A stretch of DNA of 52,578 bases from a virus, in IMG/VR virus record IMGVR_UViG_3300044638_003693, positions 1-52,578 of that record. One strand, 5' to 3'. The notes under the pieces were generated by a model. That model did no database searches, had not been told where the DNA came from, and saw only the letters and a list, made by a program, of their open reading frames with translations. Within the stretch, counting starts at the first letter, position 1; each line of letters begins with the position of its first letter. Made by a program: the position numbers and the translations under genes. Positions 5,245 through 49,383 of the stretch are shown here, piece after piece.

Positions 5245-5667
5245 ATACAAACTTTCTTGCCCTATCCCAACCTAGCAAAAACAGCCGAAGTGCTGGACTA
5301 TCGCAGGCTTGGTAAGCAACGGATAGAAACATTACAGATACTCCACACCCTCACAGGGGTCAGCCACGGCTGGCGCAACCACCCCGCAGTCAAAATGTGG
5401 GAGGGGCATGAGGTAGTCCTAGCCGACTACGGAATAGCCATGTGTGAGGAGTGGATAGCGAGAGGATACAAAGATACAACCCTGCCTCGACTGCGAGAGA
5501 TAAGAGATAACTTGGAGAACCAAGTGAGAGAACTCCCGAGATGGTGGGGAGAGCCTGCCCTACATATCTCGCACCAGAGCAATCTAATTCGCAAAGACCC
5601 TATTTTCTACGGGCAATTATTTAGTGAAGTACCATACAATTTGCCTTATTACTGGCCTCTGCCATAG
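5245..5667 (+). CDS. pyrimidine-dimer DNA glycosylase (MSMEG_6728-like), apparent AUA start
   Basis: The protein is similar to the actinobacterial MSMEG_6728-type pyrimidine-dimer glycosylase family: RLGKQRIETLQIL near the N-terminus, then GWRNHPAVKMWEGHE and YGIAMCEEW. It would excise UV dimers from phage or host DNA. Family members, as I recall them, begin MQTFLPYP. Here the frame reads ATA-CAA-ACT-TTC-TTG-CCC-TAT-CCC, so the Met position is ATA at 5245. AGAGAGG (5231-5237) lies 7 bases upstream of that ATA. The first standard alternative, TTG at 5257 (136 residues), sits 19 bases from the ribosome-binding site and would lose the conserved N-terminus. From ATA the length is 140 residues. 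The family call is firm; the start is inferred. Confidence 0.85.
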   Translation: MQTFLPYPNLAKTAEVLDYRRLGKQRIETLQILHTLTGVSHGWRNHPAVKMWEGHEVVLADYGIAMCEEWIARGYKDTTLPRLREIRDNLENQVRELPRWWGEPALHISHQSNLIRKDPIFYGQLFSEVPYNLPYYWPLP

Positions 5668-5678
5668 CCTGCTCATCT

Positions 5679-5704
5679 ACCGGCAGCGGCCTGTTGCTGC
5701 CGGT
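5679..5704. terminator. hairpin after the glycosylase gene
   Basis: A perfect 9-bp stem ACCGGCAGC / GCTGCCGGT with an 8-base loop lies 12 bases after the glycosylase stop, between convergent genes. The T tract (TTTT at about 5711-5714) is displaced by 6 bases, so terminator strength is uncertain. Confidence 0.6.
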
Positions 5705-42526: not shown

Positions 42527-43824
42527 GGTCGGTTGTTTAATCCTCTCCTATAGTCCTCAGAAGCTACAAAACCAGTAGACGCGGTGGTAAGACCAGCAGT
42601 AGACAGGAGCTGTAGAGATATTGTAACGTCCGTACGGATAGGGACCATGTCCGGAGTAAAAGCAATATGGGTTACCGCTAAGTTGTTAACGTATCCGTTA
42701 AAAGACAGCGGACCAATATCTATGTTTAAAAGAGTGGGCTGCAGGAATCCAATGTCCGCGGTAGCAATTCCGCGTGCGTTTATCCACTGGTCCCCGAGTG
42801 ACCCAGATGGCCCAATGCCATTTATAGCCCTATACAAAAACTCTAGGTCCGCTATGGTCCCTCTAGTAAATAGGTCTACTAACTTATCTTCAATACTCAG
42901 GCCTCGAGCGGAATCCGAAAGTGAGGCAATACCATGTTTGTAAAACTCTTCAAGCCCCCTAACTTGGTCCGTAGTTATGTAAGAAGCTACCGGAGCACCA
43001 ATATTAGATACGTTTATTGAGTTAGTTGGCCTATTAAACCTAGCTGCAGCACATGCAAAGTCGTTGGTTCTGTCAAGACGAATATTAAAAGTTATACCCT
43101 CAGTAGCCGGGAAGAAACCAGCGCCTCCAAGGAACCTGTCTTGAGCTGTTGGGGTTACGTCCATAGATACTGAAACGGTAGTTCCAAAGGCCTCTGGATT
43201 CCATAGGAACTGGAATCCAAATCGTCTTTCAGCGTTTTTGTCACGGATTACTTTAGTGTTTGCGCTACCCGTGACTAAATCGATACTAGGGTCGCTGGCT
43301 TTCCACCATATTCTTCCTCGGCGATACTTTTCGTTATCTTGCCCGAAGCTAAAGTTTTTTTCATCACCCAATCGCTGAACCAGCGGTAAACTCCACTTGT
43401 GCGGAGGCAAGTTCCATTTCCACTCAGAAGGGTTTGAGTACTCGGGCGTAGGCGCTATTGGGGCCGGAGCACGCTGTGAGGTGTCAGCCATTTTTGCCAC
43501 AGAGTCCCTACCCCTGTTTTTACGTTTTGTGGTATAGGTGTACGCATCCAAAACGCTGCTACCACCGTAACCCAGCTGAGGCTGGTTGTTGCCGTCACCA
43601 CTAATTTTGCTTCTGGTACTTACTTGAAAGCGTTTTTTGTACCCCACTAGCCAGGTGTTAAAGTATACTCCGGCACCAAATCCGTAGACGTTATCTTCGT
43701 TATATATCTTTTGTAGCTGGTTGATAGATGGAAAGTCGGTTCCGTATTGTTTTTTAAGAGCGGCAATATCGGCTACTGCGCGGTACTCTTCCGCTGCACT
43801 AGTAGTTCCTTTTTCAATAGCCAT
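42523..43824 (-). CDS. baseplate-associated protein of unknown family
   Basis: 433 residues. A basic segment in the first third (RSKISGDGNNQPQLGYGG, TTKRKNRGRDSV) and FGFQFLWNPEAFGTTVSVSM with a FNIRLDRTNDFACA segment look like tube- or baseplate-type beta structure. Located between LysM and tape-measure genes. May connect the tail tube to the hub. Not recognised with certainty. Confidence 0.65.
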   Translation of the reverse strand: MAIEKGTTSAAEEYRAVADIAALKKQYGTDFPSINQLQKIYNEDNVYGFGAGVYFNTWLVGYKKRFQVSTRSKISGDGNNQPQLGYGGSSVLDAYTYTTKRKNRGRDSVAKMADTSQRAPAPIAPTPEYSNPSEWKWNLPPHKWSLPLVQRLGDEKNFSFGQDNEKYRRGRIWWKASDPSIDLVTGSANTKVIRDKNAERRFGFQFLWNPEAFGTTVSVSMDVTPTAQDRFLGGAGFFPATEGITFNIRLDRTNDFACAAARFNRPTNSINVSNIGAPVASYITTDQVRGLEEFYKHGIASLSDSARGLSIEDKLVDLFTRGTIADLEFLYRAINGIGPSGSLGDQWINARGIATADIGFLQPTLLNIDIGPLSFNGYVNNLAVTHIAFTPDMVPIRTDVTISLQLLSTAGLTTASTGFVASEDYRRGLNNRP

Positions 43825-46265
43825 TATCTAGTCACCGCCATTCTTAGCTGTTCTTGGTCTTCCAAAATTCGTTTTACTTCCCTAGCAAGTTTTGTCTCGT
43901 TTACTGCGACGCCTTGAGGAACATTTATAGTTACGTTTACGCCGCCATAGTAGGTGCCTCCGCCGCCACCAGAATTAATGGTTCCACTAGAGTCGCCAGT
44001 GCCAGGGTTGTTTCCCGGGAACAATGAGCCAGCACTAGTTTGGAATAGTTTTCCAGGATTGTATGCACTTCCGCTGGTCATTCCAGACGCCCCTGTAGGA
44101 CCACCAGTGGGCGATGCTCCGCCCATAACGAGACCAGTGGGGTCACTCACGCCACCGTCTTTGTCCTCTAGTGCGACGTGAAGGTGTGCGCCAAATGAGC
44201 GACCAGTGTTACCGCTAAGGCCAATCTGTGAGCCTTCCGCAACTTCCTGGCCATCTCCTACAAGTTGAGACTTTAAGTGCCCGTAAACAGTGGCCGTGCC
44301 GTCTGAGTGCCGGATACGAATCATGTTACCGAGGGCACCCTCAACACCCGACTTTTCTACTTTTCCGCCCTTGATGGCAAACACCTTACTGCCCTCTGGG
44401 GCCACAAGGTCTATACCGCGGTGAGATTGAGTTCTAAACGACGCCTTATTACCAAACTCTCCATTTTCAGGAATCTGAAGAGTGTTCATTAGCGGAGACG
44501 AATCTCCGGTACCCTTAGCGTCAAAGTTAGAGCCAACCGCCTTTCCCAGGCTTCCTCCGGCCCAACTACCAACAGCACCACCAATAAGCGCACCTAGCAC
44601 AGGAATAGGAATTAGCATCTGGCCTAAGGCAGCGCCGGCAACTCCACCTGCAACAGAGCCCGCGGTTTCTCCCCAAGCACTGCCGCCCTGGCCTTGATTA
44701 GTAGCTTCAATGTTTCCTGGAACAGCCATAAGTGCGGTTGCTCCAGCCATAACACCACCAAATTTTAAGCCGCCCTTAAATCTGCTGGCCATGTTGGGCT
44801 TAGAATAGGCGCCCGATTTACCGTCTTTCCCAGCGCCGCCGCCTCCACCGTCAGCAACTACTGCGCCCCCGCCGCCCCCGCCGCCGACTATTGAGCCCGC
44901 ACCTAGCTGGCTAAAGAAAGTAGCAAACATTCCGGTTAAGCGTTCTTTTAAGAAATTTTCAAAGCCAGATTTAATTATTGCTCCGGCAGAGTCGAGCACG
45001 CCACCTAGAATAGTACCGCCAGCCCCGTTACCTCCGGTAGCTAGCGTTTGTCCATAAGATACTCCCTGAACAATTCCGCCAAACATCTCAACACTGTCTC
45101 TGAAGTAATTAGAAATATCACTTATGTTTGAGTTTCCACTTAACACGCCCTGGACACCGCTCTTAGTGTAGGCGTTGGTTGCACCATACTCTGCTGAGAA
45201 CCGCTTTCCAAAAGACTGAGCTACTTCAGGCAGAGCGCCACTTTCTTGCAAACTTCCCGGACCAGTCTTGTTGAGGTTGCCACCACCAGCCTTCTGGTAC
45301 AGCATAGCGATAACGCCTTGGCGAAGTACTTCATCATTACCGAAATACTGGTTAAGCATTCCGTCCAACGAGTTTCCAGGCTGCAAGGAAAGAGAAATGT
45401 CTTTGGCAGTAATACGCCCGCCACCAGTTTTAATCTTGGTAAGGTAGGCCCAAATCTGGTTACCTACTTGCTCGGCGCTGTTCATCAACCCTGTAGAGGG
45501 GTCACGAACTTGAATGCCAATCATCTTAAGTTTGTTTACGTTTTGCGCCTGGTTTAGTGCGACAGTTGCCTGCATACCGCCTTCAAGGCCTGCACCAGGA
45601 GTAAGATTGCTAAACAGTTGAGCGCTCTTAGAAACGGTCTCGTAGTTGGCTAAGCCCGCCATCATACCGCTACTGTTTCCAAGACCTACGGCTCTAGAAG
45701 CATCCATTTTATCGGTGGCAGTGCCGCCAATCATCATGCTTTGAAATACTTGAGCGCCTGCCTTAGCGCCCGCGTCTCCGCCAATACCCATGTAGAATCC
45801 GGCCCGGCGGCGTGAGATGTCGTTCTCAACATACTCCTCAGGCCTAATTGCCTGGAAGGTAGCCATAACCCCAGTGGCTACGAGAGACTTGCCGGCGGCA
45901 AACATGTCAGCGCCGAATGTACTTTGGCGCTTTGGTTGTATATATCCGAGGGAGGTCGACTCACCTGGTTTAAAGGTGCCCTGTTGCACAAAGCCCGTAG
46001 GAACAGCGCCCCCAGAAGGGATGGCGCTTTGTGGAGAGAAGCCCATTGTTCCTGATACATCAGGTGCCATAGGGTTCATGGCTGTGCCGCTGTTACCGCT
46101 AGCCGCAGACTTAAGGTTCTTGGCGATAGTCTCTGAAAGCTGCTTAGTCTTCTCTAAGGTGGTGTTCAGAGCTTTAAAGGCAGAGTTAAGGTCATCGACT
46201 AGCTTGGTCTTCTTGACCATGCTTCGGCTTCCGCCCAAGTTCAGTGACTGTTTAGTATCAGCCAT
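43824..46265 (-). CDS. tape-measure protein with M23 peptidase domain
   Basis: 813 residues, short for a myovirus tape measure. An Ala/Gly-rich and helical N-terminal half, a Gly-rich hinge (about 460-480) and a hydrophobic Ala/Gly region are followed by an M23 domain. Its zinc motifs are SHRGIDLVAP (about 617) and GAHLHVALED (about 695). Wall-degrading domains in tape measures open peptidoglycan at infection. It starts two bases after the stop of the frameshift extension. Confidence 0.9.
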   Translation of the reverse strand: MADTKQSLNLGGSRSMVKKTKLVDDLNSAFKALNTTLEKTKQLSETIAKNLKSAASGNSGTAMNPMAPDVSGTMGFSPQSAIPSGGAVPTGFVQQGTFKPGESTSLGYIQPKRQSTFGADMFAAGKSLVATGVMATFQAIRPEEYVENDISRRRAGFYMGIGGDAGAKAGAQVFQSMMIGGTATDKMDASRAVGLGNSSGMMAGLANYETVSKSAQLFSNLTPGAGLEGGMQATVALNQAQNVNKLKMIGIQVRDPSTGLMNSAEQVGNQIWAYLTKIKTGGGRITAKDISLSLQPGNSLDGMLNQYFGNDEVLRQGVIAMLYQKAGGGNLNKTGPGSLQESGALPEVAQSFGKRFSAEYGATNAYTKSGVQGVLSGNSNISDISNYFRDSVEMFGGIVQGVSYGQTLATGGNGAGGTILGGVLDSAGAIIKSGFENFLKERLTGMFATFFSQLGAGSIVGGGGGGGAVVADGGGGGAGKDGKSGAYSKPNMASRFKGGLKFGGVMAGATALMAVPGNIEATNQGQGGSAWGETAGSVAGGVAGAALGQMLIPIPVLGALIGGAVGSWAGGSLGKAVGSNFDAKGTGDSSPLMNTLQIPENGEFGNKASFRTQSHRGIDLVAPEGSKVFAIKGGKVEKSGVEGALGNMIRIRHSDGTATVYGHLKSQLVGDGQEVAEGSQIGLSGNTGRSFGAHLHVALEDKDGGVSDPTGLVMGGASPTGGPTGASGMTSGSAYNPGKLFQTSAGSLFPGNNPGTGDSSGTINSGGGGGTYYGGVNVTINVPQGVAVNETKLAREVKRILEDQEQLRMAVTR

Positions 46266-46267
46266 TC

Positions 46268-46432
46268 TTACCTACCTCTGAGCCTTCCAGCTCTAGAAAT
46301 CCAATTCATACGCTCTCTTGCGGACAAGCTTCTGATATCAGCTAGCGTCCATCCAGTAAATGCTCGAGATAGTGATTCGTATTGGTCCAGTAAGTTCTCG
46401 TAATCTGATTCTTTATAGACGAAACAAGTCTG
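46268..46432 (-). CDS. +1/-2 frameshift extension of the gp26-like gene
   Basis: A 54-codon frame without a usable start codon lies between the stop of the gp26-like gene and the tape-measure gene. It opens only after a TAG in the same frame at 46433-46435 and ends at 46268-46270, two bases before the tape-measure ATG. It encodes helical sequence (NLLDQYESLSRAFTGWTL, ARERMNWISRAGRLRGR). The two frames overlap at 46416-46432, around CGT-CTA-TAA, where a +1 or -2 shift would join them. Tail-assembly chaperone genes before tape measures often use such a shift. The frame and overlap are seen; the shift is inferred. Confidence 0.6.
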   Translation of the reverse strand, partial: QTCFVYKESDYENLLDQYESLSRAFTGWTLADIRSLSARERMNWISRAGRLRGR

Positions 46433-47213
46433 CTAACGACAACGGCATAGGAATCTCCTCGCCGCATGCCTCACAGGTCGTCTTCACCTCCCCAAGGCGT
46501 GGCCCTGGGTTACGGGTCAGAATCTCAGAAATAATCTTTTCGCGGTCCTTCATGCCCAACTTGAGCACAGTAGTTGCGCCCATAGACACGATGCCGTTTA
46601 CAGATTCAACACAGCCGGCTAGAAGAATAGTGTTAATCTCCGCAGCAGTCTTGTCAGCATTTTCTAGCAATTTCTTCTGAGTTACTCCAGTAGGCAATCC
46701 GACTACGATAGTCCCAGCCTTGGCTGACTCGTAAGTAAACTTACGGTCTTCCAAAGGGCTCTCTAAGTTTTTGTAGGGAATGTCGGTAGTAAGGTCTACT
46801 GAAACAGAAAGGTCAGTTTGGCAATGAGGGCACGGAAACTCAAAGTCAATTTCGTTACCGAAAGTGACCCTGCGGATTCCAATAAGGATTGCGTCTCGGT
46901 CTCCGCTAAGGAGGCTGTCGAACGCATCTTTATCAGGCTTTTCCATACCTAATGAAACAAGCCCGCGCTGTAGCATGACTACAAGGGCTCTGCCGGTAGA
47001 CCCTGCTTTAGAAATGGCCTCTTCGTCCATTCCGTTTAGCTCACGGACCTCGGCGTATTTGACGAGGCTACCATCCCCGGCGACAAATCCGCCGGGGAGG
47101 ATAACCTCAGAACTAGAAGGAGCAACCGTCTTAATTTCAGGCGCTGGCTCTTCAAGTAATTGTTCAGCTAGTTGGTTGATGACCGTTGGGTCACTGCTCG
47201 TATTTTCAGACAT
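46413..47213 (-). CDS. gp26-like baseplate hub protein / tail-assembly chaperone
   Basis: 266 residues. Two zinc-type pairs, FPCPHCQTDL (about 128-137) and CEACGEE (about 248-254), and a PGGFVAGDGSLVKYAEVREL N-terminal segment match the T4 gp26/baseplate-hub family found before tape measures. It ends PLSLADLFRL, overlapping a frameshifted extension. Likely a chaperone of tape-measure and tube assembly. Starts at 47213, 53 bases after the tube gene. Confidence 0.75.
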   Translation of the reverse strand: MSENTSSDPTVINQLAEQLLEEPAPEIKTVAPSSSEVILPGGFVAGDGSLVKYAEVRELNGMDEEAISKAGSTGRALVVMLQRGLVSLGMEKPDKDAFDSLLSGDRDAILIGIRRVTFGNEIDFEFPCPHCQTDLSVSVDLTTDIPYKNLESPLEDRKFTYESAKAGTIVVGLPTGVTQKKLLENADKTAAEINTILLAGCVESVNGIVSMGATTVLKLGMKDREKIISEILTRNPGPRLGEVKTTCEACGEEIPMPLSLADLFRL

Positions 47214-47266: not shown

Positions 47267-47881
47267 CTACGTACGGATGTAGTCACCGCGAACGTCGCTA
47301 GCTAGCTCTACAGATAGACCCTCGTGAGCCAACGACATGGTTTCCATGATAATTTCGTTGCCCTGAGCGTTTAGGTCTGAGAAGCTTAGGCTGCTAATCC
47401 AGGCGTTGTACACGTTGAACTTCATCTTGTAAGCCTGCTGAGAGATAAGGTCGTTAGCAGTAATCTGAGGTCCGCCGGTAGCTGGGTGGTCTAGCACGTA
47501 GATAGCCAAGTTGCAACGGAAGGTAGTGTTAGTACCTAGTGGCAAGCCCTGTCCAGATGTAGCAGCAAATAGGCTGCGCATCCATTTAATGGCCTGGTCG
47601 TTGCCGAGGATAGTTCCACGGGTTAGGGTTAGCGGCTGGAATGAGGTCATTCCAGGAACCTGGTGTAGCGAGGTGTTCATCCCACCTTCGCGGTAACCGA
47701 TTGCGTTGGTGGTGATTGCTAGACCTGATACTGAGGTAAAGCCTCCACGCAAGGTGGTTAGCTCACCGCTAACTGGCTGACCGTCGCCAGTTGCTGTAAA
47801 GTCCACGACAAAGCGGAAATTACGTAGCGGGTCAGTCTGGATGGTGGAGAAACGAGCTAGTGATTTAGCTTGCTGTGCCAT
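47267..47881 (-). CDS. tail tube protein (gp19-like)
   Basis: 204 residues. FRFVVDFTATGDGQPVSG, TLRGGFTSVSGLAI, REGGMNTSLHQVPG and LTRGTILGNDQAIKWM match the phage tail tube (PF06841/T4 gp19-type) fold. Builds the inner tube inside the sheath, gene order sheath-tube as usual. Confidence 0.9.
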   Translation of the reverse strand: MAQQAKSLARFSTIQTDPLRNFRFVVDFTATGDGQPVSGELTTLRGGFTSVSGLAITTNAIGYREGGMNTSLHQVPGMTSFQPLTLTRGTILGNDQAIKWMRSLFAATSGQGLPLGTNTTFRCNLAIYVLDHPATGGPQITANDLISQQAYKMKFNVYNAWISSLSFSDLNAQGNEIIMETMSLAHEGLSVELASDVRGDYIRT

Positions 47882-47892
47882 TTATTTGCCTC

Positions 47893-49383
47893 CTAGGCGA
47901 TAGTGACAACAGCGCCGCTGTCGTACTGGCTAATGCGGATAACTACAAATTCAGCAGGGCGCTGCAAAGCAACTCCGACCTCGATGTTAACCTGACCGTT
48001 CTCAACTGAGATTAGCGGGTTATTCTCGGCGTCACACTTTACAAAGAAAGCGTCAGCTGGGGTTACACCACGTAGACCGCCCTGAGCCCAAAAATCAGTC
48101 AGGAATGATTCAATTGTGGTGGTTACTCGACGCCATAGACGGAAGTCGTTTGGCTCGAATATGGCGAACTGGGTCATGTCACTCAAGCTCTTGCGCAAGT
48201 AAATCAAGCTTCGGCGAACAGACACGTAGCGGTCTGCGTAGCCTGGCTTTAGAGTGCGAGCACCCATGATTACAATGCCTGAGCCCGGGATATAGCGAAT
48301 TGCATTTACTGGTGCCACTGCGCTGTTAAGCGAATCAAGCTCAGCGTTAGTTAGCTTAGGTACTGAAACGGCTCCAGAGATGCGAGTAGACAATCCAGCT
48401 GGTGACTTGAACACTCCATTAGAAGCATCGGTAGCCATGAACTGACCTACTACTGCGCCGCCTGGTGGCACAACCTTAGTTGCTCCAGCTGCTAGTGCTA
48501 GTGGGTCAGCAATAGTTAGGCTAGGGTAATATACAGCAGCCTGCGAAGACGCGGTGTAAGCATCTGCTCTGGTGAGCTGAGCTGACACAGTATCTACAAG
48601 CGGGTCGATAACTAGGAAGATATCTTCGCGGCTAGTAATGTAAGAAATTACAGAGTTGACATCAGTAGTGGTCACTAGTCCAGGAACGTTAAGTACCAAA
48701 GGAACATCTACAGTATCGAACTTGCTTGTTCCCGCTGCAATGTTAGCGGTAGTAAGTGCGGTACCATTAGCGCCAGTTGATAGGCTAGCGTTAGCTGTAG
48801 TAGCAGGGTTGTCAGTAGCTTGGTGGCTGTCACTTGGGCTAGAGTCAGTTGCAGTCAGGTAGGTTGACGAACCGTTGATTACAGACACAGCATAGCGCGG
48901 GTCTGAGTTCAGCATGGTTACGTCAGTGAACCTCTCAACAACGTACGCATCAGTCGTGCCGCCGTAGAATACGGTTACATCAAAGTAACCAGTAATTACT
49001 GAAGCTGAGATGGTCACGTTGATGCTGTTACCCCATGCTCCAGGGTTATTAGCAGTGAGCACTAGGGTTGCGGCTGGGGTTGTGTTAGTGTCGTTAAACG
49101 TGCGAGTAGCAGCTACTGCGTCGCTTGCGGTGACGCGGCTAATGTAGCACTGGTTTCCACCATTCGCAAAGAACAGATAGACCGCAGTGGTCACATCATT
49201 TAGGGTGCCCCATGAGCCGTACAATCTGGTGTACTGAGACCATGAGGTTACTAGGGTAGCGACTGTTGGGCCTCTGTCAGTTGCGCCCATAAAGGCGGCA
49301 ACAGAGCCGGCAGCAGCACCGCCCACAGGTGAGATAGCGTTAAGGGTTTCCTCAACGTAAACTCCGGGACGTAGGTACGTCAT
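47893..49383 (-). CDS. tail sheath protein
   Basis: 496 residues. PGVYVEETLNAISPVGGAAA and VAAFMGATDRGP at the N-terminus, LFFANGGNQCYISRV and the C-terminal RYVSVRRSLIYLRKSL plus EPNDFRLWRRVTTTIESFL are the phage tail-sheath pattern. Contractile sheath; establishes the myovirus morphology. Confidence 0.95.
   Translation of the reverse strand: MTYLRPGVYVEETLNAISPVGGAAAGSVAAFMGATDRGPTVATLVTSWSQYTRLYGSWGTLNDVTTAVYLFFANGGNQCYISRVTASDAVAATRTFNDTNTTPAATLVLTANNPGAWGNSINVTISASVITGYFDVTVFYGGTTDAYVVERFTDVTMLNSDPRYAVSVINGSSTYLTATDSSPSDSHQATDNPATTANASLSTGANGTALTTANIAAGTSKFDTVDVPLVLNVPGLVTTTDVNSVISYITSREDIFLVIDPLVDTVSAQLTRADAYTASSQAAVYYPSLTIADPLALAAGATKVVPPGGAVVGQFMATDASNGVFKSPAGLSTRISGAVSVPKLTNAELDSLNSAVAPVNAIRYIPGSGIVIMGARTLKPGYADRYVSVRRSLIYLRKSLSDMTQFAIFEPNDFRLWRRVTTTIESFLTDFWAQGGLRGVTPADAFFVKCDAENNPLISVENGQVNIEVGVALQRPAEFVVIRISQYDSGAVVTIA

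What the first reader, a model, noticed from the sequence alone, without database searches (positions are those of the whole stretch)
46268..46435. Probable programmed +1/-2 frameshift just before the tape measure
Seen: the gp26-like gene ends at CGT-CTA-TAA (46413). A second, start-less frame of 54 codons overlaps it by 17 bases and continues to two bases before the tape-measure ATG. It opens only 15 bases before the first frame's stop, leaving a very narrow shift window. Known: tail-assembly chaperone genes upstream of tape measures use frameshifts (G/GT type), mostly -1, with -2 proposed for Mu-like phages. Inferred: this gene makes a short and an extended form by a +1 (or -2) shift; neither a classic -1 slippery heptamer nor an obvious one for this frame is seen, so the mechanism would be unusual.
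Basis: partly seen in the sequence, partly recalled or inferred. Interest (0 to 1): 0.72.

Follow-up and report, generated by a model that had tools for sequence, protein, structure and literature searches.

The report
+1 frameshift makes extended tail chaperone
In this freshwater virus of bacteria, ribosomes most likely sometimes skip one base at the sequence UUU-C near the end of a tail-building gene and so make a second, longer protein; the same UUU-C and the same hidden extension occur in about 130 related sequences.

Summary
On the minus strand a T4 gp26-like gene (PF12322; 46413-47213) ends TTG TTT CGT CTA TAA; a 50-codon +1-frame extension (46420-46271) runs to two bases before the tape-measure ATG. 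In 131 related loci the extension is always in the +1 frame and UUU_C always lies 1-3 codons before the stop, even in GC-rich genomes that otherwise use TTC. Third positions of TTG TTT are invariant in 57 non-redundant phages while neighbouring ones vary. The extension has dN/dS about 0.14 and often no start codon; the window has no re-pairing route for -2. The best PDB fold match, weak alone, is the HK97 tail assembly chaperone. T4 has the equivalent short and long proteins as two genes (26, 51); some bacterial loci encode both parts in one frame, others behind a T9 run in the -1 frame. So this is a programmed-frameshift tail chaperone, a new variant (+1 at a PA-X-like site) of a known kind. 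No protein data exist; efficiency is unknown.

The parts
46413..47213 (-). Short product: gp26-like tail assembly chaperone, 266 aa, stop TAA 46415-46413
   Evidence: ORF; PF12322 E 2.4e-13; AlphaFold pLDDT 90, best PDB fold match HK97 tail assembly chaperone 2ob9 (prob 0.77, E 0.86, so weak alone); best BFVD match 'Baseplate hub assembly protein, bacteriophage T4-like' E 8e-21
46421..46424 (-). Shift site TTT_C: P-site tRNA-Phe slips from UUU to UUC
   Evidence: TTT_C in all 131 loci (130 read; L062, which has an upstream internal stop); third positions of TTG TTT invariant in 57 NR loci; only re-pairing codon in 63 of 74 NR loci
46425..46427 (-). TTG codon, E site when UUU is in the P site; third position invariant in the freshwater clade, CTG in most GC-rich relatives
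46413..46415 (-). Zero-frame stop TAA, two sense codons (CGT CTA) after TTT
   Evidence: distance 2 in 115, 3 in 14, 1 in 1 of 130 loci
46271..46420 (-). C-terminal extension read after the slip, 50 codons (VYKESDYENLL...RER.NW...), giving a 314-aa long product; stop TAA 46270-46268
   Evidence: +1 frame in every locus of this branch; dN/dS about 0.14 versus control-frame ratios of 1.0 and 1.85; some relatives weakly similar to DUF6760
43824..46265 (-). Tape-measure-like protein with M23 peptidase domain, 813 aa
   Evidence: PF01551 3e-26; phrog_4070 tail length tape measure 2.7e-15
47267..47881 (-). Tail tube protein (gp19-like) upstream of the chaperone
   Evidence: PF06841 5e-26
47893..49383 (-). 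Tail sheath protein: contractile tail
   Evidence: PF17482 8e-10

Best explanation
The gene is a tail assembly chaperone of the T4 gp26/gp51 kind expressed as two proteins. Most ribosomes read TTG TTT CGT CTA TAA and stop, giving the 266-aa short form. A fraction slip +1 while tRNA-Phe sits in the P site on UUU: it re-pairs with the overlapping UUC and translation continues GUC UAU AAA..., giving a 314-aa long form ending ...SLADLF-VYKESDYENLL.... By analogy with lambda gpG/gpGT the short form would coat the tape measure and the extension would recruit tail tube protein. Shown by sequence: the frame, the invariant site, purifying selection on the extension, gene order. Inferred: that slippage happens, its efficiency, and the role of each product.
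For: Extension in the +1 frame in every locus of the phage/actinobacterial branch. TTT_C in all 131 loci, whereas the A-site codon varies (CGT 55, CGC 48, CGA 15, CAA 5, CTC 3, CAG 2, CCG 1, CTG 1), so the conserved unit is the tetranucleotide needed for UUU to UUC re-pairing. In 16 GC-rich loci other Phe codons in the gene are 15 TTT and 87 TTC, naive p about 7e-14 for TTT at all sites. Third positions of TTG TTT are 100% invariant in 57 loci while upstream third positions are 32-70% conserved. Extension pN<pS in all 236 pairs, dN/dS about 0.14, control frames 1.0 and 1.85. 28 of 74 loci have no ATG/GTG/TTG from the frame's opening to 70 nt past the shift; L015 and L050 have none in the whole extension frame. 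In nine bacterial genomes gp26-like domain and extension-like domain are one in-frame ORF. T4 gp26 and gp51 are PF12322 paralogues, gp51 with about 48 extra C-terminal residues aligned by hhalign to the extension (weak). Best PDB fold match is HK97 tail assembly chaperone (weak). UUU_Ynn is +1 shift-prone in bacteria (PMC5009743) and UUU_CGU is the influenza PA-X site (PMC3498833).
Against: No mass spectrometry, ribosome profiling or reporter data. No conserved downstream RNA structure (mean z -0.55 against -1.01 in a control stretch) and essentially no Shine-Dalgarno-like stimulator, so efficiency may be low. The HK97 and gp51 matches are individually weak. Relatives are not independent, so the naive p-value overstates the statistical weight.
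Confidence: 0.92

Rival explanations
1. A -2 slip, as reported for phage Mu, reaches the same frame.
For: Same resulting frame; -2 is used by phage Mu (PMC5009743).
Against: No codon in the window's interval can re-pair at positions 1 and 2 after a -2 slip, and 58 of 74 loci have none, whereas TTT re-pairs after +1 in all of them. The invariant bases are exactly those needed for +1 re-pairing.
Confidence: 0.03
2. The extension is a separate small protein started by reinitiation or a non-standard start codon just after the gp26-like stop, as annotated in some Streptomyces phages and as in other actinobacterial loci where a DUF6760 ORF overlaps the upstream gene by ATGA/GTGA.
For: Related DUF6760 ORFs in L152-L154 do have their own start; public annotations place starts inside the extension.
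Against: 28 of 74 loci have no usual start codon in the relevant stretch, L015 and L050 none at all. The annotated starts are internal, unconserved TTG/ATG codons that drop 14 or 28 residues. It does not explain invariant TTT_C.
Confidence: 0.04
3. The two frames are an assembly error or a decayed remnant.
For: None for the window; one relative (L062) does carry an isolated internal stop in the gp26-like gene.
Against: Same offset in 131 loci, including isolated and fully sequenced Streptomyces phages; strong purifying selection on the extension.
Confidence: 0.01

Closest known systems
Lambda G/GT and other tail assembly chaperone frameshifts (Xu, Hendrix and Duda 2004)
   Same: Gene between tail tube and tape measure; short form plus C-terminally extended form; extension without its own start; shift near the 3' end
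   Different: Lambda and most others use -1; here +1 on UUU_C. The gp26-like protein has two CxxC motifs and is larger than lambda gpG (size of gpG from own knowledge)
T4 gp26 and gp51 (PF12322); T4-like tail assembly chaperones (Vladimirov, Gautam and Davidson 2022, Virology 566:9, known here by title from the reference list of PMC12846349 and by recall)
   Same: Same Pfam family; gp26 corresponds to the short form, gp51 to the long form with a C-terminal addition
   Different: T4 has two separate genes on opposite strands, no frameshift; here one gene with a +1 frameshift
Influenza A PA-X and amalgavirus UUU_CGN +1 sites
   Same: UUU_CGN with P-site UUU to UUC re-pairing
   Different: Bacterial ribosomes; A-site codon not restricted to CGN (12 of 130 loci differ); E-site codon TTG/CTG rather than UCC
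Other bacterial UUU_Ynn +1 shifting (natural case YopN-TyeA, PMC5009743)
   Same: Same shift-prone tetranucleotide in bacteria
   Different: Here it is conserved over a large phage clade in a tail chaperone gene
Listeria phage PSA CCC_UGA and RF2 CUU_UGA +1 sites
   Same: +1 P-site slippage in phage or bacteria
   Different: Those slip next to a stop codon (RF2 with an upstream Shine-Dalgarno element, own knowledge); here the slip is 1-3 codons before the stop. L056 and L146 carry a CCC_TGA as well

Membership tests
Programmed-frameshift tail assembly chaperone (G/GT type) | Located between major tail tube gene and tape measure gene | tested here: met
   Sheath, gp19-like tube, this gene, then M23-bearing tape-measure-like protein
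Programmed-frameshift tail assembly chaperone (G/GT type) | Overlapping downstream frame without its own start, conserved in relatives | tested here: met
Programmed-frameshift tail assembly chaperone (G/GT type) | Conserved shift-prone site in the overlap | tested here: met
   TTT_C in all 131 loci
Programmed-frameshift tail assembly chaperone (G/GT type) | Chaperone fold | tested here: inconclusive
   Top PDB hits include 2ob9_A/B HK97 tail assembly chaperone, prob 0.77 but E 0.86-1.4
Programmed-frameshift tail assembly chaperone (G/GT type) | Two proteins made in a fixed ratio, neither in the virion, required for tails | not testable with these tools
   Needs proteomics and genetics
UUU_CGN +1 site (PA-X/amalgavirus type) | Zero-frame UUU followed by C in the overlap | tested here: met
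UUU_CGN +1 site (PA-X/amalgavirus type) | A-site codon CGN | tested here: met
   CGT in the window; 118 of 130 loci have CGN, 12 have CAA, CAG, CTC, CTG or CCG, so the rule is looser in this family
UUU_CGN +1 site (PA-X/amalgavirus type) | Measured +1 product with Phe at the junction | not testable with these tools
   Needs mass spectrometry
PF12322 (T4 gp26/gp51) | Profile match above curated cut-off | tested here: met
   50.7 bits against 24.5; T4 gp26 and gp51 also match
T4 arrangement (two separate genes 26 and 51) | Short and long forms from separate paralogous genes | tested here: inconclusive
   Only one gp26-like match in the 52.6-kb record, but the record may be incomplete
Mu-type -2 frameshift | P-site codon that can re-pair two bases upstream | tested here: not met
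   None in the window; none in 58 of 74 loci

The most novel reading that the evidence does not exclude
UUU_C is a bare +1 recoding signal in bacteria, needing no RNA structure, Shine-Dalgarno element, adjacent stop codon or fixed A-site codon. It has been maintained across a deep clade of contractile-tail phages and prophages, mostly of Actinobacteria, while relatives in other contractile systems make the same two-domain chaperone by a T9 run in the -1 frame, by overlapping genes, by in-frame fusion or by gene duplication.
Probability: 0.6. Interest if true: 0.7.

Novelty: new variant of a known kind. Interest (0 to 1): 0.55.

Why it matters
It gives a large, natural and easily tested set of +1 frameshift sites in bacteria with the same UUU_C core as influenza PA-X. 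Firth et al. 2012 (PMC3498833) predicted a class of UUU_C sites with restricted A- and E-site codons; the variation here in A-site codon (CGN, CAR, CTS, CCG) and E-site codon (mostly TTG or CTG) allows that to be tested. It also corrects public annotations in which the extension is missing or truncated, and shows several genetic solutions for making one two-domain tail chaperone.

Tried and rejected
RNA structure downstream of the site: no consistent signal. Upstream Shine-Dalgarno-like stimulator: one 5-base match in one locus only. -2 slippage: no re-pairing in the window. Separate start codon: not conserved. Phage-encoded tRNAs: none in the window. Pfam/NCBIfam names for the window's own extension: none; only some relatives reach DUF6760, weakly. 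Sequence search of solved structures: no relative. The key paper on T4-like chaperones and the haloarchaeal virus papers are not in the library, so the HSTV-2 myovirus, reported as very likely +1 (PMC5009743), could not be compared.

Full report
What is there. The window (a 52.6-kb virus record; G000) encodes a contractile tail on the minus strand: sheath, gp19-like tube, a 266-aa PF12322 protein, a 54-codon start-less frame, and an 813-aa tape-measure-like protein with an M23 peptidase domain. The end of the PF12322 gene reads GCA GAC TTG TTT CGT CTA TAA AGA. The extension frame reads CAG ACT TGT TTC GTC TAT AAA GAA: it is the +1 frame.

Comparison. tblastn found six records of five Streptomyces phages; peptide and profile scans found 52 and then 80 loci (partly the same contigs) in IMG/VR and 16 in bacterial genomes. 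In all loci with a readable 3' end that belong to the phage/actinobacterial branch, the extension is in the +1 frame. Its core is DYE.LLDQYE.L.R.F.GWTL.DIR.LS.RER.NW, in Streptomyces phages YEQLVDAY.WSL.EI.KLT.RER.HW.

The shift site. Of 131 loci, 130 have zero-frame TTT followed by C 1-3 codons before the stop. The remaining one, L062, has an internal stop upstream and its true tail is also TTT CGT. The codon after TTT is CGN in 118 but CAA, CAG, CTC, CTG or CCG in 12, so what is conserved is TTT_C itself. In 57 non-redundant freshwater loci the third positions of TTG and TTT are invariant, while upstream third positions are 32-70% conserved. In 16 GC-rich loci the gene otherwise has 15 TTT and 87 TTC. 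Over the window's ORFs TTT is followed by C in 9.5% of cases and TTC in 27% (p 4e-8), which fits avoidance of a shift-prone sequence elsewhere, though a base-context bias could contribute. No other codon in the interval can re-pair after a +1 slip in 63 of 74 loci, and -2 re-pairing is impossible in 58 of 74, including the window.

The extension is a real coding sequence. Across 236 moderately diverged pairs pN is below pS every time, dN/dS is about 0.14, and the two control frames give 1.0 and 1.85 with several stops per locus. Start codons are absent or unconserved. The annotated starts in LuckySocke, Alone3, GiJojo and BRock are internal ATG or TTG codons that drop 28, 28, 14 and 14 residues, and pSt2308 has no annotation there.

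Mechanism. [quoted passage not shown] PMC3498833 argues for P-site slippage on UUU_C in influenza PA-X and predicts a wider class. PMC5052127 gives UUU_CGN for amalgaviruses. From my own knowledge, Schwartz and Curran (1997) measured UUU CGU and UUU CGG shifting in E. coli directly. No conserved RNA structure or Shine-Dalgarno element was found, so the signal appears to be the short sequence itself. That the shift occurs, and how often, is inferred.

Function. T4 gp26 and gp51 both match PF12322, and gp51 carries about 48 further residues that hhalign places on our extension (E 0.0055 but probability only 6.6%, weak). The predicted structure of the short form (pLDDT 90) has as its best PDB match the HK97 tail assembly chaperone 2ob9 (probability 0.77, E 0.86), and as best viral matches T4-like baseplate hub assembly proteins. 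With the gene order, this supports a tail assembly chaperone with a short and a long form. A paper title (Vladimirov, Gautam and Davidson 2022, in the reference list of PMC12846349) states that T4-like tail chaperone genes were identified and suggests a mechanism other than frameshifting; I recall that these are genes 26 and 51 in T4 and that some T4-like groups do frameshift. The paper itself is not held.

Other arrangements in the family. Ramlibacter L151, whose neighbours are sheath, two gp19-like tubes, a CIS_tube protein and a GPD-type hub, and relatives L147-L150 have the extension in the -1 frame after nine T residues, suggesting -1 ribosomal or transcriptional slippage. In loci of nine other genomes (L163-L165, L168, L169, L171-L174) the two domains form one uninterrupted ORF. 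In L152-L154 a DUF6760-type ORF overlaps the upstream gene by ATGA or GTGA.

Verdict. The finding is confirmed and sharpened: a +1 programmed frameshift at UUU_C in a gp26-type tail assembly chaperone. It is a new variant of a known kind. Limits: no expression data, related sequences are not independent, and I could not read the most relevant T4-like chaperone paper, so part of this may already be described there.

Noticed in passing
L147, L149, L150 (Lysobacter/Lysobacteraceae MAGs), L148 (Acidobacteriales MAG), L151 (Ramlibacter monticola), about 5640-5700 of each locus: Homologous genes, in L151 inside an apparent contractile injection system, have the extension in the -1 frame directly after a run of nine T: a candidate -1 frameshift or transcriptional slippage site.
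   Followed up: partly
L163-L165, L168, L169, L171-L174: gp26-like domain and the extension domain occur as a single in-frame ORF in nine bacterial genomes, evidence that the two parts belong together.
   Followed up: partly
L152-L154 (Saccharothrix, Streptomyces rimosus, S. diastatochromogenes): DUF6760 (PF20546) appears to be a relative of the extension and is there a separate ORF overlapping the upstream CxxC-bearing gene by ATGA or GTGA.
   Followed up: partly
OR725497 gp91, OR725492 gp93, PP725410 gp83, NC_048650 gp135, PV588686 (no gene); L002-L006: Public annotations of Streptomyces phages miss the frameshift: the extension is annotated from internal ATG/TTG codons, or not at all.
   Followed up: yes
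L056 and L146, last codons of the gp26-like gene: Two relatives carry TTT CGC CCC TGA, i.e. UUU_C followed by the classic CCC_UGA +1 site.
   Followed up: no
L062, codon 58 of the gp26-like gene: Isolated in-frame TAA in one relative; probably an assembly error or a mutant copy.
   Followed up: no
window, all ORFs of 80 aa or more: TTT is followed by C much less often (9.5%) than TTC is (27%), as expected if UUU_C is avoided elsewhere.
   Followed up: partly
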